Below are positions 22,301 through 27,040 of a stretch of 47,053 nt of DNA, piece after piece; the stretch's first letter is position 1; each line of letters starts with the position of its first letter. The position numbers and the translations under genes are program-made. The notes beneath the pieces are model-generated. The model did not search any database. It was not told where the DNA came from and saw only the letters and a list, made by a program, of their open reading frames with translations. Origin of the DNA: Deltaproteobacteria bacterium (GTDB taxonomy: Bacteria > Desulfobacterota > Desulfarculia > Desulfarculales > Desulfarculaceae); assembly GCA_020444205.1 (NCBI GenBank), contig JAHLLJ010000015.1, positions 1 through 47,053 of the forward strand, in the 5' to 3' direction.

Positions 22301-23008
22301 ATGGCAAAACCCATACTCATCGCCGAAGACGACACCAAGACCGCCAACTTGGTGGCCAAGTATCTGGAACGGGAAGGTTATGCGGTGCTTATCGTCACCG
22401 ATGGCGCCGAAGCCTTACGGCTGGCCGACGAGCATGAGCTTCGTCTGGTGATTTTAGACTTGATGCTGCCCAAGGTGGATGGTTGGGAGGTCTGCCGCCG
22501 CCTCAGGAAAACCAGCAATGTCCCCATTTTGATGCTCACGGCCCGAGGCGAGGAGATCGACCGGGTTTCCGGCCTGGCCTTGGGCGCTGACGATTATGTT
22601 GTGAAGCCTTTCAGCCCACGGGAGCTCGTGGCCAGGGTGCAGGCCTTGTTGCGGCGCACCGAAGGTGAATTAAGGCATGCCCCGGTTCGGCTCAAGGCGG
22701 GCCCTCTGGTCCTGGACCAGGACAGTTACCAGGCCTGGTTGGAAGACCGCAAGCTGGAGCTAACTCTGCACGAGTTCCGCATTTTGGCGGCATTGATGGA
22801 AAAGCCCGGACGAGTGCTCTCCCGCGAGCAATTGCTGTCCTGCCTTTATCCCCAGGGGGAGGCGGTGGTGGACCGGGTGATAGACGTGCACATAGGCAAA
22901 TTGCGCCAAAAGTTGGATACCGATCCCGCAAGGCCCAGCCATATAAAGACGGTGCGAGGGGTGGGATACAGCCTGCTCACCCCGGAAGAGCTCCATGAGA
23001 AAAATTAA
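22301..23008 (+). CDS. OmpR/PhoB-family response regulator
   Basis: 235 residues. The receiver domain (1-~115) has the acidic pocket EDD (9-11), the phospho-acceptor Asp in LDLMLPKVDGWE, the Thr in LMLTARG and the Lys in YVVKPF. A winged-helix DNA-binding domain (about 130-230) shows LTLHEFRILAALMEKPGRVLSREQLL and the wing VIDVHIGKLRQKL. Its stop overlaps the kinase start by 14 bp. OmpR/PhoB proteins bind tandem direct repeats spaced by 11 bp; such repeats lie upstream of msrB at 25955-25982, so the redox genes downstream are the likely regulon. Confidence 0.93.
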   Translation: MAKPILIAEDDTKTANLVAKYLEREGYAVLIVTDGAEALRLADEHELRLVILDLMLPKVDGWEVCRRLRKTSNVPILMLTARGEEIDRVSGLALGADDYVVKPFSPRELVARVQALLRRTEGELRHAPVRLKAGPLVLDQDSYQAWLEDRKLELTLHEFRILAALMEKPGRVLSREQLLSCLYPQGEAVVDRVIDVHIGKLRQKLDTDPARPSHIKTVRGVGYSLLTPEELHEKN

Positions 23009-24104
23009 GTGGCATACCGGCCTGCTCGGCAAGCTCATGAGCATCAACCTGCTGGTGGTGCTTTGCGCCATGGGCATTACCTGGTGGGCCTTGGACAGTC
23101 TGTCCGCGAACTACTTTATGACCTTGATGAAAAAGTTCAACATCTCCAGCGAAGCCACCAACACCATGTTCCTGGAGGCCGTGCACCGCTACCTGATCTG
23201 GGCCGGTATAGGCGCGATTGTTCTGGCCACCCTCTTAAGCCTCTGGTTGATGCGGCGGGTCTTGCGGCCCTTACTAAGCATGAACCGCCTTACCAGGGTC
23301 ATGGCCCATGGCGACTTTGAGCAGAGAGTGCCGCAGGGACCGGCCGATGAAATAGGCGAGTTGGCCGACTCCTTCAACGAGATGGCGGCCAGTCTGCAGC
23401 GCCTGGAAAATCTGAGGCGCAACATGGTGATCGATGTAGCCCATGAACTGCGCACCCCCATCACCAACATTCAAGGTTACCTGGAGGGCATCCAGGATGG
23501 AGTTCTGGAGCCTGACCCGGAAACCTTGGACCTGTTGCACGAAGAGGCTGTTCGCTTGAGCAAACTGGTCAACGACCTCATTGACTTGGCCAGGGCCGAC
23601 GCGGCGCGTTTCGAAATGAAAACACAGCCGATTGATTTGGCAAAATTGATTTCGCAAGAGCTCAAATCCTTCCAATCCCGTTTCGAGCAAAAGGAGTTGG
23701 AACTTAAGATCGATTTCCCCGATTCTCCGGCCTTGGTGATGGCCGACTCCGATAAAATGCGCCGGGTTGTAGCTAATTTGCTGGACAATGCGCTGAATTA
23801 CACGACTCGCGGCGCTTGGGTGCAAATCAGCCTTCGCTCCGAGAACAACCAGGTGACCACTGAAATGGCAAACCCCAGCAGCACCTCCCCGCCCCTAGAC
23901 GCCACCATGGTTTTCGAACGTTTTTATCGGGGAGAAAAATCCAGATCCCGTCAGTTCGGCGGGGCCGGTCTGGGGTTGGCCATAGTAAAAGAACTGGTCC
24001 AGGCCCATGGTTCCCAGGTGGAGGCCGAGGCCCTGGAAGGCACTTTTCGTATCCGCTTCAGTTTGCCGGCCGTCGCTCCCCAAGCCGCTTTACCGAATCT
24101 TTAA
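22995..24104 (+). CDS. membrane sensor histidine kinase (BaeS/CusS-like)
   Basis: 369 residues. Two membrane segments (about 10-32 and 60-83) flank a very short periplasmic loop of roughly 27 residues. A HAMP domain with PLLSMNRLTRVMAHGDF and DEIGELADSFNEMA follows. The phospho-acceptor box is VAHELRTPITN and the N box NLLDNALNYT. The G1 box reads EMANPSSTSP instead of DxGxG, and the G2 box is GGAGLGLAIVKELV. Asn-Pro in place of Asp-x-Gly is also found in CusS/HprS-type kinases, which sense metals or oxidants. A sensor loop this small suggests sensing at the membrane face or through a partner. It pairs with the overlapping response regulator. Confidence 0.9.
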   Translation: MRKIKWHTGLLGKLMSINLLVVLCAMGITWWALDSLSANYFMTLMKKFNISSEATNTMFLEAVHRYLIWAGIGAIVLATLLSLWLMRRVLRPLLSMNRLTRVMAHGDFEQRVPQGPADEIGELADSFNEMAASLQRLENLRRNMVIDVAHELRTPITNIQGYLEGIQDGVLEPDPETLDLLHEEAVRLSKLVNDLIDLARADAARFEMKTQPIDLAKLISQELKSFQSRFEQKELELKIDFPDSPALVMADSDKMRRVVANLLDNALNYTTRGAWVQISLRSENNQVTTEMANPSSTSPPLDATMVFERFYRGEKSRSRQFGGAGLGLAIVKELVQAHGSQVEAEALEGTFRIRFSLPAVAPQAALPNL

Positions 24105-24198: not shown

Positions 24199-24840
24199 AT
24201 GATATCCCGCCGCAATTTTGTCACCAGCCTGATCAAAGTTTCCACCGGCGTCTTTCTGGGATTGGGCGGCCTGGCGCAAAGCGCCGGTGCCGCGGCCAAA
24301 CGCAAGCTCCTGCCTAAAGGAACCTCGGCGGAGCGGTTGAGCCACCTGAATCCCCAAAACGTAGACGCTTCCCAACTGGGGATCACCCCGCTGGAAAAGT
24401 TCGAGACCATGGGCCTAAGCGACCATCGCGTGGATATTGGCACCTGGCGTTTAGAAGTGGCGGGCAAGGTGGACGCTCCCATGAGCCTTGACTACTCCCA
24501 GGTCAAGAGCCTGCCCATGGTGGAGCGCAAGGAGCTGCTGATCTGCCCGGGCGTCTTTTCCTATAAAGCGCTTTATCAGGGAGTGTTGTTGAAGGTCTTG
24601 TTAGCCAAGGCGGGGCTGGGAAAAGAGGCCAAGGAGGTTATCATCAGCGGCCCCAGGGGCTCTTGGTCTAAAAAGGAACGCTTCACCTTAGGGGAAATCC
24701 ACGCGGGCCGGGTCTTTTTGGCCTGGTCGGTCAATGGGCGGCCCTTGCCTATTAAGCACGGGTTTCCCCTGAGGGTAGTCGCCCCTGATCATTACGGGGA
24801 TGACTGGGTCAAATATGCCGACAAGGTGGAAGTGTTATGA
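24199..24840 (+). CDS. Tat-exported molybdopterin oxidoreductase, sulfite-oxidase fold (MsrP-like)
   Basis: 213 residues. The N-terminus has the twin-arginine motif SRRNFV (residues 3-8) and a hydrophobic stretch, so it is exported folded with its cofactor. The rest is one sulfite-oxidase-fold molybdopterin domain; the molybdenum-ligand Cys is C116 in LLICPGVFS. The C-terminal segment around GFPLRVVAPDHYGDDWVKY is typical of the fold. It lacks the extra length of E. coli MsrP (~330 residues) and no MsrQ haem partner is adjacent, so the electron donor is unknown. The setting (two-component system upstream, MsrB and an MsrA-like protein downstream) suggests a role in oxidised-methionine repair, but a sulfite or other oxo-substrate is possible. 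ATG 24199 is chosen over GTG 24184 because AAGGGAGA precedes it. Confidence 0.78.
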   Translation: MISRRNFVTSLIKVSTGVFLGLGGLAQSAGAAAKRKLLPKGTSAERLSHLNPQNVDASQLGITPLEKFETMGLSDHRVDIGTWRLEVAGKVDAPMSLDYSQVKSLPMVERKELLICPGVFSYKALYQGVLLKVLLAKAGLGKEAKEVIISGPRGSWSKKERFTLGEIHAGRVFLAWSVNGRPLPIKHGFPLRVVAPDHYGDDWVKYADKVEVL

Positions 24841-24874
24841 CCGCTGATAGCGGGCAAGATATGGGCCATTGAAC

Positions 24875-25840
24875 ATGCGAGATGGTTTGATTGGAAACGG
24901 TAAGGGTATGCAGCCGTTTGCGCAAACCTTGAGGAGCCACGGGCTCAACCTAGTCAGGGATGAAACCAGTACCCTGCAGATAAACCTGGGCAGGCTCTGC
25001 AATCAGGCTTGCCGGCATTGCCACCTGGAGGCGGGGCCCGGGCGTAAGGAGCTCATGGGCGTTGACACCGTTGGTCAGGTGGCTGATTACGCCCAGCGGG
25101 GTGGGTTCAACACGGTGGACATCACCGGTGGAGCACCCGAATTAAATCCGTATTTACCGCTTCTGGTGGATATGGTGCGGCCATATGTGCGCAAAATTAT
25201 TCTGAGGATCAACCTCACCGCCATCGGCAACAAGGAGTATAGGTGGTTGGTGCCTTTCCTAGCCGAGCGCGGAGTGTGCCTGGTGGCGTCCTTGCCTTCT
25301 CTGGATCCCCTACAGACCGACGCCCAGCGCGGCCAAGGAGTTTTCCAAGACAGCCTGGCCGCCTTGAGATTTCTCAATGAGTGGGGCTACGGCCTCGACG
25401 GCAAGGGCAAGGAGCTGGACCTAGTCAGCAACCCGGTGGGAGCCGCCATGCCGCCGGATCAGGCTCAAAGCGAAAATCGCTTCCGCGAAGAGTTGCTGTC
25501 CAAGTGGAACATCTCTTTTAACAATTTGTACATCTTTGCCAACGTTCCCTTAGGCCGCTTCAAGGCCTGGCTTATGGACTCGGATAATTTGAAAAGCTAC
25601 CAAGGTCAGCTGGCAACCGGCTTCAACCCCGGTGCGGTTAGAGGCTTGATGTGCCGCAGCATGATCTGCGTTTCCTGGGAAGGGATTCTATACGACTGCG
25701 ACTTCAATTTGGCTGCCAGGCTTCCCTACACGGGCCGCAGGGTAAACGTCTCGCAAATGGCTGGGCCTCCACCGGCCGGGGCCCCCATAGAGGTGGGAGA
25801 TCACTGCTACGCTTGCACCGCCAGCAGCGGCTTCACCTGA
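24875..25840 (+). CDS. radical SAM protein of the ArsS (arsenosugar biosynthesis) family
   Basis: 321 residues. The radical SAM cluster motif is CNQACRHC (C42, C46, C49, CxxxCxxC), followed by the SAM-binding segment VDITGGAPELNP. The C-terminal part carries further cysteines in LMCRSMICVSWEGILYDCDFN and the final HCYACTASSG, the pattern of the ArsS family with its DUF3641-type C-terminal region. ArsS is linked to making the dimethylarsinoyl-ribose core of arsenosugars, but no arsM or other arsenic gene is nearby, so the true substrate here is uncertain. ATG 24875 or TTG 24869 could start it; neither has a strong ribosome-binding site. It lies 34 bp after the molybdopterin-protein gene, so co-transcription is likely. 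Confidence 0.78.
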   Translation: MRDGLIGNGKGMQPFAQTLRSHGLNLVRDETSTLQINLGRLCNQACRHCHLEAGPGRKELMGVDTVGQVADYAQRGGFNTVDITGGAPELNPYLPLLVDMVRPYVRKIILRINLTAIGNKEYRWLVPFLAERGVCLVASLPSLDPLQTDAQRGQGVFQDSLAALRFLNEWGYGLDGKGKELDLVSNPVGAAMPPDQAQSENRFREELLSKWNISFNNLYIFANVPLGRFKAWLMDSDNLKSYQGQLATGFNPGAVRGLMCRSMICVSWEGILYDCDFNLAARLPYTGRRVNVSQMAGPPPAGAPIEVGDHCYACTASSGFT

Positions 25841-25954
25841 TCCGGAGCCATAGGCGCCTGAGTTCAGGCGTTTTCTTGGGGCTCAAAGCCAAAGTTGATT
25901 TACAGAGGCTTGCCTCCACCACAAAGGCGTGCAGCGCGGCCAATTTTATTGAAT

Positions 25955-26067: not shown

Positions 26068-26718
26068 ATGAGCTTTATTAAGGTCCTTATCGTGGCACTC
26101 ATGGCCGTAGCAGCGTTCGTGTTTTATAACCAAAGTATCGCAGCGGCGCAGTCAGGGACCATGGATACCATGGCCGGGAAAAAGGATGCCATGAAACCAA
26201 TGGGCGATACCATGAAGACCATGGGGGACATGAAGAGCAAAGAGGTTGACGGAGGAGGGGCGCAAATGAAAACCAGCGCCATGTACAGCCGCCCGGACGA
26301 TGAGACCCTACGCCGCGAGTTGACCTCCGTGCAATATGAGGTCACCCAGGAAAACGGCACCGAGCCTGCTTTTAAAAATGCCTACTGGGATAACCATGCA
26401 GAAGGCATCTACGTAGACATCGTCTCAGGAGAGCCGCTTTTCAACTCCAAGGACAAATTTAAATCGGGCACCGGATGGCCCAGCTTCACTCGGCCCTTGG
26501 AGCCGGACAATATCGTGGAAAAGATCGACCGCAGCTTTTTCACGACCCGTATCGAAGTGCGCAGCAAGCACGCCTCGTCTCATCTGGGGCACGTGTTTGA
26601 AGATGGGCCCAAGCCCACGGGCCTGCGCTATTGCATCAACTCGGCGGCCCTGCGTTTTGTTCCCAAGGAAGAGCTGGAGAAGCAAGGCTACGGAAAATAT
26701 TTGGAGCTATTCAATTAA
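26068..26718 (+). CDS. msrB: exported peptide-methionine (R)-S-oxide reductase
   Basis: 216 residues. Residues 1-~28 form a signal peptide or anchor, then comes a methionine-rich linker (about 30-72, nine Met) and a complete MsrB domain (about 75-200). Family landmarks are [51 protein letters not shown] and the active-site RYCINSAAL with catalytic C189. The two CxxC zinc motifs found in some MsrB proteins are absent. It reduces methionine-R-sulfoxide in proteins, here outside the cytoplasm. The ATG at 26068 follows AGAGGTG. Sixteen bases after its stop lies an MsrA-like selenoprotein gene, so the pair should cover both sulfoxide epimers. The Met-rich linker might itself be an oxidation target. 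Confidence 0.92.
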
Positions 26719-26734
26719 ATAGAAAGGATATCCC

Positions 26735-27040
26735 GTGGTGAAGCTTGTCTTGGCAATAGTCGTGGCTGTCATGCTCGCCGGATTCCTTGGGTCCGCTTCG
26801 GTTGCGGCAAAGCATGGCGCTTGGTCCAAAATCGTATTTTATGTAGCCTGATATGACGTGGGCAAGGCAGCCCTGGAGGGGTTGCCGGGCGTCAAAGAGG
26901 TGAAAAGAGGGTTCCACTCGGGGCGCGAGATAAACACCGTGATCTATGATCCCCAAGTCATCAACCTTGAAAAAATGATATCCGCGCTCAAGGCTGCCGG
27001 TACTTATATAGGAATTGCAAAGGAGAAGCCCAGACAATAG
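26735..27040 (+). CDS. exported MsrA-like selenoprotein, in-frame TGA read as selenocysteine
   Basis: 101 residues if the TGA at 26849-26851 (codon 39) is selenocysteine. GTG 26735 follows GAAAGGA and begins a signal peptide (about 1-25, ASVAA-KHG). The mature part runs IVFYVA-Sec-YDVGKAALEGLPGVK, then KRGFHSG and VIYDPQVINLEKM. Without gaps this aligns with the MsrA core GCFWxxExxFxxLPGVxxxxxGYxGG, placing Sec exactly on the catalytic Cys; the YDP segment also fits MsrA. The PTYxxVCxGxTGH section and the C-terminal half of normal MsrA are missing. The reading frame is otherwise intact on both sides of the TGA, and a SECIS-like stem-loop follows. MsrB is directly upstream. Alternatives are an HMA-type metal-binding domain (spacing to LPGV is the same, and the C-terminal SALKAAGTY resembles HMA) or a pseudogene. 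Conventional gene callers would miss or split it. Confidence 0.75.
26861..26886 (+). promoter_or_regulatory. SECIS-like stem-loop downstream of the in-frame TGA
   Basis: GGCAA (26861-26865) pairs with TTGCC (26882-26886), and CCC (26871-26873) with GGG (26878-26880), leaving the apical loop TGGA. The loop begins 23 nt after the TGA, within the usual range for bacterial SECIS elements, and contains G residues as SelB recognition normally needs. The inner bulge is large, so the exact fold is uncertain. Confidence 0.5.

What the first reader, a model, noticed from the sequence alone, without database searches (positions are those of the whole stretch)
26735..27040. Short, exported MsrA-like protein with selenocysteine at the catalytic position
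Seen: an in-frame TGA at codon 39 in an otherwise intact 102-codon frame with its own ribosome-binding site and signal peptide. The TGA aligns without gaps on the catalytic Cys of the MsrA core (Cys-x10-LPGV-x5-G(Y/F)). The protein is about half the length of known MsrA and lacks the PTYxxVCxGxTGH section. It directly follows an exported MsrB. A compact periplasmic seleno-MsrA would be unusual, and standard gene calling would hide it.
Basis: partly seen in the sequence, partly recalled or inferred. Interest (0 to 1): 0.86.

Follow-up and report, generated by a model that had tools for sequence, protein, structure and literature searches.

The report
Tiny exported selenoprotein beside methionine-repair genes
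A small exported bacterial protein that gene callers are likely to miss carries the rare amino acid selenocysteine where a methionine-repair enzyme has its active cysteine, and it is often encoded next to such repair enzymes, so it is probably a new part of the repair of oxidised proteins outside the inner membrane.

Summary
The 101-residue frame with TGA at codon 39 is almost certainly a selenoprotein gene. Of 54 relatives found with patterns downstream of the TGA, 53 have TGA at the same place and none has Cys; the 54th (L053) has a non-family N-terminus. A SECIS-type hairpin is supported by covariation and frozen codons. selA and selD are intact in the genome; selB and tRNA-Sec survive as pieces near contig ends. 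All 53 mature proteins counted have one Sec and no Cys.

The MsrA resemblance is real: profile comparison puts Sec on the catalytic Cys, also with that column masked. The HMA/MerP metal-chaperone family is almost as close, and much of MsrA's active site is missing. The strongest clue is context: Msr genes in 30 of 55 loci, 28 of them adjacent or fused, including one MsrB fusion.

My reading: a Sec-only family of compact MsrA-plait proteins in envelope methionine-sulfoxide repair. Whether it reduces the sulfoxide or relays electrons is untested. No structure could be predicted. The searches made found no curated family or paper describing it.

The parts
26735..27040 (+). Selenoprotein gene: export-like N-terminus plus one MsrA/HMA-type alpha/beta plait, 101 residues with Sec39
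   Evidence: frame; TGA-bearing relatives; family alignment
26849..26851 (+). TGA codon 39, read as selenocysteine
   Evidence: TGA in 53 of 54 named loci
26866..26886 (+). SECIS-type hairpin after the TGA (stem 26866-26874 with 26878-26886, loop 26875-26877)
   Evidence: -23.2 kcal/mol for 26849-26899, z -3.66
26723..26728 (+). Ribosome-binding-like site AAAGGA
   Evidence: sequence
26068..26718 (+). MsrB with export-like N-terminus and a Met-rich stretch
   Evidence: TIGR00357 E 3.2e-61; SelR domain PF01641; Met-rich stretch
24869..25861 (+). ArsS radical SAM protein; its apparent stop TGA 25838-25840 is probably a second selenocysteine codon
   Evidence: TIGR04167 347.4 bits ending at the TGA, 356.8 bits and full profile when read through
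24199..24840 (+). Molybdopterin oxidoreductase of the sulfite-oxidase superfamily
   Evidence: PF00174 95.2 bits; SorA, SoxC and MsrP models match below cut-off
22995..24104 (+). Sensor histidine kinase
   Evidence: best model BaeS, below its cut-off
22301..23008 (+). Response regulator
   Evidence: best models CreB and BaeR, below their cut-offs

Best explanation
The gene encodes a small exported selenoprotein made of a single MsrA-type alpha/beta plait with one selenocysteine and no cysteine. It works in the envelope beside MsrA/MsrB, and sometimes a sulfite-oxidase-type molybdoenzyme, in the repair of oxidised methionine. Shown: UGA-decoding signals, conservation, lone Sec, gene linkage and one MsrB fusion. 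Inferred: Sec39, helped by the invariant Glu65 (spaced from the YDP motif as the MsrA Glu is), attacks a methionine sulfoxide or a related oxidised sulfur group; the selenenic acid or mixed selenenyl sulfide is then resolved by an outside thiol, because the protein has no resolving Cys. The most likely detailed form is a compact Sec-dependent MsrA-like reductase; a Sec relay that re-reduces MsrA/B is the close second.
For: TGA conserved in 53 of 54 loci. Hairpin: 53 of 54 against 41.4 expected after synonymous recoding; covariation 0.293 against 0.173, 0 of 500 shuffles; frozen codons. selA, and selD with its own TGA. Profile match to MsrA with Sec on the catalytic Cys: probability 96.7, E 4e-10; score 54.8 with Sec masked against a maximum of 18.6 in 150 column shuffles. 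Msr gene in 30 of 55 loci, upstream in some and downstream in others, although msrA averages about one copy per genome (15 matches in 14 genomes). One MsrB-Sec fusion. One Sec and no Cys in 53 of 53.
Against: HMA is almost as close by profile, first by solved structures, and CopZ and MerP models match 28 and 20 of 54 members against 22 for the MsrB/A fusion model and 7 for msrA. MsrA segments NPTY and DRGxQYR and its second Cys are lacking. A MsrA already stands in 27 of the 30 Msr-bearing loci; 18 of 55 loci have neither Msr nor molybdoprotein in the DNA held, some cut by contig ends. One carrier genome, G077, shows no MsrA at E 1e-15. Three of eight same-genus genomes lack the gene. One relative has Ser. 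hhalign did not itself pair Glu65 with the MsrA Glu, and the HMA domains aligned here have a Glu at a similar spacing. No structure and no assay.
Confidence: 0.6

Rival explanations
1. Sec-based redox relay: the protein does not act on methionine sulfoxide itself but carries electrons to, or resolves intermediates of, the adjacent MsrA/MsrB through a transient selenenyl sulfide.
For: Lone Sec without a partner Cys; Msr genes adjacent in 28 of 55 loci, one of them an MsrB fusion; a complete MsrA is usually already present.
Against: Invariant Glu65 and Asn67 and the MsrA register of the Sec suggest a catalytic pocket rather than a plain carrier. No reductase chain for it was identified, and none was specifically searched for. 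G077 carries the gene without a detected MsrA.
Confidence: 0.25
2. Selenium-containing metal chaperone: an HMA/MerP-type protein in which Sec binds copper, mercury or another soft metal in the periplasm, linked to Msr genes because metal stress oxidises methionine.
For: HMA profile probability 95.6; MerP best solved structure, E 0.0013; 52 of 54 match the metal-binding selenoprotein model NF041115 below cut-off.
Against: No CxxC or UxxU: the residue three before Sec is Tyr in 33 of 54 and never Cys or Sec, and mature proteins have no Cys. The HMA alignment starts after the Sec. The neighbours are Msr genes; no metal-transport family was among the recurrent clusters.
Confidence: 0.12
3. The TGA is a plain stop and the downstream frame is an accident or a decaying gene.
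For: tRNA-Sec did not reach the cut-off and selB is incomplete in the window's own draft assembly. Standard calling ends the gene at the TGA.
Against: TGA in 53 of 54 loci with the frame conserved on both sides; covarying hairpin; selA and a TGA-bearing selD in the genome; 39 bases of tRNA-Sec at a contig end.
Confidence: 0.02

Closest known systems
MsrA, peptide-methionine (S)-S-oxide reductase (PF01625, TIGR00401), including known seleno-MsrA
   Same: Register of Sec on the catalytic Cys, Phe four before it, aromatic residue after it, (L)xGV, G-aromatic and YDP motifs
   Different: About half the length; no NPTY or DRGxQYR segment, no second Cys, Sec in all family rows used; scores below Pfam and NCBIfam cut-offs for the window protein
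HMA / MerP / CopZ metal-binding domains (PF00403)
   Same: Similar beta-alpha-beta-beta-alpha pattern by sequence, (L)xGVxxV, YDP and C-terminal helix LKKAG; profile probability 95.6
   Different: No CxxC; Sec lies outside the aligned columns; 5 of 54 members match PF00403 at E up to 1
NF041383, VPGUxxT thioredoxin-like (seleno)protein type 2
   Same: 54 of 54 match, window protein on positions 139-204, E 1.5e-8; a full MsrA also matches positions 132-258, so I infer that this half is MsrA-like
   Different: The NF041383 model is 287 positions with a separate thioredoxin-like half; ours stands alone and scores 34.7 against a cut-off of 275 bits
NF041115, UxxU metal-binding (seleno)protein
   Same: Small, Sec-containing, related plait; 52 of 54 match below cut-off
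   Different: Two Sec in UxxU (review table; relative L082); ours has one Sec; window protein 28.5 against a cut-off of 95 bits

Membership tests
Selenoprotein (bacterial UGA decoding) | In-frame UGA conserved across relatives with conserved flanks | tested here: met
   53 of 54 named loci; seven further loci in six related genomes
Selenoprotein (bacterial UGA decoding) | SECIS hairpin just downstream of the UGA | tested here: met
   RNAalifold on its own is weak (5 pairs)
Selenoprotein (bacterial UGA decoding) | SelA, SelB, SelD and tRNA-Sec in the genome | tested here: met
   selA and selD over cut-off; selB in two pieces, not over cut-off; tRNA-Sec only as 39 bases at a contig end
Selenoprotein (bacterial UGA decoding) | Selenium in the protein | not testable with these tools
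   needs 75Se labelling or mass spectrometry
MsrA (PF01625 / TIGR00401) | Score over the curated cut-off | tested here: not met
   window protein PMSR 12.4 against 23.7 bits; 16 of 54 match PMSR and 7 of 54 TIGR00401 at E up to 1
MsrA (PF01625 / TIGR00401) | Catalytic Cys (or Sec) in the GCFW context | tested here: inconclusive
   Sec on the catalytic Cys with Phe at -4 and Tyr or Phe at +1, but Asp, Ser or Asn in place of Trp at +2
MsrA (PF01625 / TIGR00401) | Catalytic Glu before YDP (role recalled) | tested here: inconclusive
   Glu65 invariant with the same spacing to YDP, but hhalign placed its gap on the other side and local HMA domains have a Glu there too
MsrA (PF01625 / TIGR00401) | NPTY and DRGxQYR segments and resolving Cys (roles recalled) | tested here: not met
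   absent; 23 of 23 neighbouring MsrA domains have P43, Y45, D92, G94, Y97 and C17
MsrA (PF01625 / TIGR00401) | Reduction of methionine-S-sulfoxide | not testable with these tools
   needs an assay
HMA (PF00403) | CxxC metal-binding motif | tested here: not met
   no Cys in 53 of 53 mature proteins
HMA (PF00403) | Score over the curated cut-off | tested here: not met
   no PF00403 match listed for the window protein; 5 of 54 members at E up to 1, best 0.022
NF041383 VPGUxxT type 2 | Score over the curated cut-off | tested here: not met
   34.7 against 275 bits for the window protein
NF041115 UxxU metal-binding | Score over the curated cut-off and UxxU motif | tested here: not met
   28.5 against 95 bits for the window protein; single Sec

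The most novel reading that the evidence does not exclude
A Sec-only, Cys-free, stripped-down methionine sulfoxide reductase: the MsrA active site reduced to one alpha/beta plait in which selenium stands in for parts that full-length MsrA needs, and whose sequence sits between MsrA and the HMA metal chaperones and may record a common origin of the two.
Probability: 0.35. Interest if true: 0.85.

Novelty: new variant of a known kind. Interest (0 to 1): 0.72.

Why it matters
It adds a selenoprotein family that searches based on Cys/Sec pairs would be expected to miss, because no Cys form turned up among 54 loci. It places selenium in envelope methionine repair in a protein that is not an ordinary MsrA. 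If the small protein reduces methionine sulfoxide, it is a near-minimal scaffold for asking what Sec buys an Msr enzyme. If it feeds electrons to MsrA/B, it would be a possible reductant for exported Msr enzymes. Either outcome can be tested with a protein of about 100 residues.

Tried and rejected
Viral contigs: a scan with the window protein found no relative. Rfam at gathering scores on the window gave nothing. A search of 297 genomes for NF041383 gave one hit, which is an ordinary MsrA. A search of seven carrier genomes gave one VPGUxxT protein whose match covers only the thioredoxin-like half.

Rejected: plain stop codon (conservation, hairpin); ordinary HMA chaperone (no CxxC); ordinary MsrA (missing segments, score). 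Replacement of a lost MsrA is rejected as a general rule, because 27 of 55 loci contain MsrA; it stays possible for loci with MsrB alone (window, L036, L070), although the window's genome has one MsrA elsewhere and the genome of L036 (G410) has two msrA matches, one below the cut-off.

Met-rich exported peptides beside the gene: 11 of 54 loci had a Met-rich same-strand frame within 1.8 kb, but several of these are the Msr proteins themselves; by frames it is 11 of 824 near against 6 of 1308 far. Suggestive only. The precedent of a Met-rich peptide working with a periplasmic Msr was seen only as a title in a reference list.

Paper searches for this family: searches returned no paper; one search returned four, fifteen (eight listed), one. 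Nothing in these listings describes it. In the review table of 119 families (PMC13188914) I recognise no entry as this family; I saw passages and parts 1 and 2 of 3 of its section 7. The 2007 Olavius symbiont paper is not held, so an unnamed hypothetical protein there cannot be excluded.

Full report
OBSERVATION. The frame is as described. GTG 26735 opens 101 codons that end at TAG 27038-27040, with one TGA at 26849-26851 as codon 39. The N-terminus is hydrophobic and an AAAGGA site precedes the start. The MsrB gene (26068-26718; TIGR00357 E 3.2e-61), itself with an export-like N-terminus, stops 16 bases upstream.

SELENOCYSTEINE. A search of 148 genomes (the own one and relatives) found 10 with a match. 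Outside the own genome, seven loci in six genomes carry one TGA at the aligned place; one divergent relative has Ser, codon AGC (L011); two weak matches are HMA-type proteins without TGA at the site (L012, L013). Three of the eight same-genus genomes (G004-G006) gave no match although they have selA. To avoid bias for or against TGA, I then searched one genome per species with an alignment whose other rows begin after the TGA. Of 114 pattern matches, 54 loci encode relatives; 53 of 54 have TGA at the aligned place, none Cys. The exception, L053, has GCA and a non-family N-terminus and was dropped from the alignments, though it stays in the locus count of 55 below. In a sample of 395 genomes of the phylum, 13 matched. 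The nine strongest rows lie on places or contigs already seen with TGA, judged by position and contig length (one length differs by 100 bases); the tenth is the Ser relative; the last three are HMA-type proteins, one with UxxU and two with CxxC.

SECIS. In 53 of 54 sequences the first 51 bases from the TGA fold into a hairpin with the SECIS layout that I recalled (apical loop 13-37 bases after the TGA, with G in its first two bases). Random synonymous recoding of the same peptides gives 41.4 expected; mean z is -0.94 and 45 of 54 are below zero (the codon pool included the stretch itself, which makes the control conservative). The codons are frozen: Ala46 GCC 50 and GCT 4 of 54, Leu47 CTG 54 of 54, codon 49 GGG 50 of 54, against CTG 151 of 415 other Leu and GCC 184 of 484 other Ala codons of these genes. 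For the 8-pair stem, 90.3% of cells pair against 83.0% in shuffles and the covariation score is 0.293 against 0.173, both reached by 0 of 500; the number of pairs changed on both sides, 4 against 2.4, is reached by 14 of 500; slid versions pair 36-58%. The outermost pair fails in 20 of 53 distinct sequences. Related sequences inflate such numbers, and RNAalifold on its own finds only 5 pairs at -2.03 kcal/mol. The window's own hairpin folds at -23.2 kcal/mol, z -3.66.

MACHINERY. The window lies in a draft genome of 342 contigs, 82.5% complete and 5.3% contaminated. selA is over its cut-off. selD is over its cut-off and itself has an in-frame TGA. selB appears as two pieces, model 1-185 and 399-580, both by contig ends and neither over the cut-off. 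tRNA-Sec did not reach the cut-off, but its 3' 39 bases, identical to those of a same-genus genome, start contig C249.

FAMILY ANATOMY. All 53 mature proteins of the named collection have one Sec and no Cys, counted from 14 residues before Sec; the window protein has none either. In 54 aligned rows (53 plus the window), Phe35, Val37, Sec39, Gly43, Ala46, Leu47, Gly52, Glu65, Asn67, Asp72, Leu85 and Thr90 are invariant. By a crude count 53 of 54 have a hydrophobic N-terminal stretch, and one has a lipobox. By record title four carriers are Nitrospirota or Thermodesulfovibrionia, two SAR324, one Myxococcales; nearly all others are Deltaproteobacteria or Desulfobacterota groups, mostly draft metagenome assemblies.

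MSRA OR HMA. Single-sequence matches are weak: PMSR E 0.19, Menkes copper domain E 0.29. Over 54 members, 16 match PMSR (best 0.00096) and 5 HMA (best 0.022) at E up to 1. Against solved structures the family profile finds MerP first (E 0.0013) and MsrA at E 0.46. Profile-profile comparison gives MsrA probability 96.7, E 4e-10, over 59 columns with Sec on the catalytic Cys, and HMA 95.6, E 1.3e-8, over 44 columns that start after the Sec; MsrA against HMA gives 42.9. With the Sec column masked, scores are 54.8 and 43.6, while 150 column shuffles reach at most 18.6 and 14.5. In NCBIfam, 54 of 54 match NF041383 and 52 of 54 NF041115; CopZ models match up to 28, the MsrB/A fusion model 22, MerP 20 and msrA 7. 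The matched stretch of NF041383 also matches a full MsrA (L085), so I infer that it is MsrA-like. Phe four before Sec is invariant here and in the 23 MsrA domains aligned (24 extracted, L032 not used); the HMA consensus has none. The Glu argument is weaker: the spacing to YDP fits, but hhalign put its gap on the other side, and the local HMA domains have a Glu there too. MsrA active-site roles are recalled, not looked up.

CONTEXT. In 55 loci (54 plus the window; some cut by contig ends), tblastn finds MsrA or MsrB in 30, MsrA in 27. From the distances printed, 18 have an Msr gene directly upstream and 9 directly downstream on the same strand within 250 bases, 1 is fused and 2 lie farther off. 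A sulfite-oxidase-superfamily molybdoprotein is found in 9, Msr or molybdoprotein in 37, a histidine kinase in 31 and a response regulator in 27; kinases and regulators are large families, so those two counts mean less. In a clustering of predicted neighbours, apart from these families no cluster reaches more than 4 of 55 loci. msrA is rare in these genomes: 15 matches in 14 genomes, none in the carrier G077. G021 has the order molybdoprotein, MsrAB, selenoprotein (L005). In L036 an MsrB with an export-like N-terminus runs in frame into the Sec domain: MsrB model E 4.1e-59, with the MsrB/A fusion model running on to residue 237 and NF041115 and NF041383 over the tail. This is a single instance in one draft genome. 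The molybdoprotein is not a clear MsrP: SorA, SoxC and MsrP models all match below cut-off.

MECHANISM. Shown: UGA-decoding signals, lone Sec, export-like N-terminus, Msr linkage. Inferred: Sec39 is the reactive group of an MsrA-like pocket, with Glu65 as possible acid; the oxidised Sec is resolved by an outside thiol. I give 0.6 to a role in envelope methionine-sulfoxide repair with MsrA-like Sec chemistry, 0.25 to a pure electron relay, 0.12 to metal binding, 0.02 to a plain stop. No structure supports the pocket: the prediction job failed and the tool was then off.

NOVELTY. Known seleno-MsrA is full length (recalled); two carrier genomes also have such a protein (L121, with the PF20939 helical domain, and L122). 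I found no description of this family: not in the review PMC13188914 (passages, and parts 1-2 of 3 of section 7), not in passages of PMC9312934 and PMC12013277, and not in the listings of searches. The library is partial and the Olavius symbiont paper is not held.

Noticed in passing
window 25838-25861: The apparent stop of the ArsS radical SAM gene is a TGA that reads GFT-Sec-SGAIGA before the next stop, as in the GxxU motif listed for ArsS; the model score rises from 347.4 to 356.8 bits and covers the whole profile, and a hairpin follows.
   Followed up: partly
L036 4113-4922: Export-like MsrB fused in frame to the Sec domain, a single instance.
   Followed up: partly
L121 and L122 (G193, G410): Full-length MsrA-type proteins with Sec at the catalytic place in two carrier genomes; L122 reads GUFUG, that is two TGA codons.
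   Followed up: partly
L120 (G000 contig C208): selD of the window's own genome has an in-frame TGA, so it is probably a selenoprotein itself.
   Followed up: partly
L082 (G200): HMA-type domain with a UxxU motif (GMTUMSU) followed by further coding sequence, apparently the NF041115 type joined to another domain.
   Followed up: no
L035, L057, L059, L064; window 26068-26300: Small Met-rich frames next to the selenoprotein gene, and a Met-rich stretch in the window's MsrB, possibly oxidant sinks.
   Followed up: partly
L011 (G075): Divergent relative with Ser (AGC) in place of Sec; none of the Msr or molybdoprotein queries matched in the 3.2 kb held.
   Followed up: partly
L053: The only family locus without TGA; its N-terminus reads like a response-regulator start, so it may be a chimeric assembly.
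   Followed up: no
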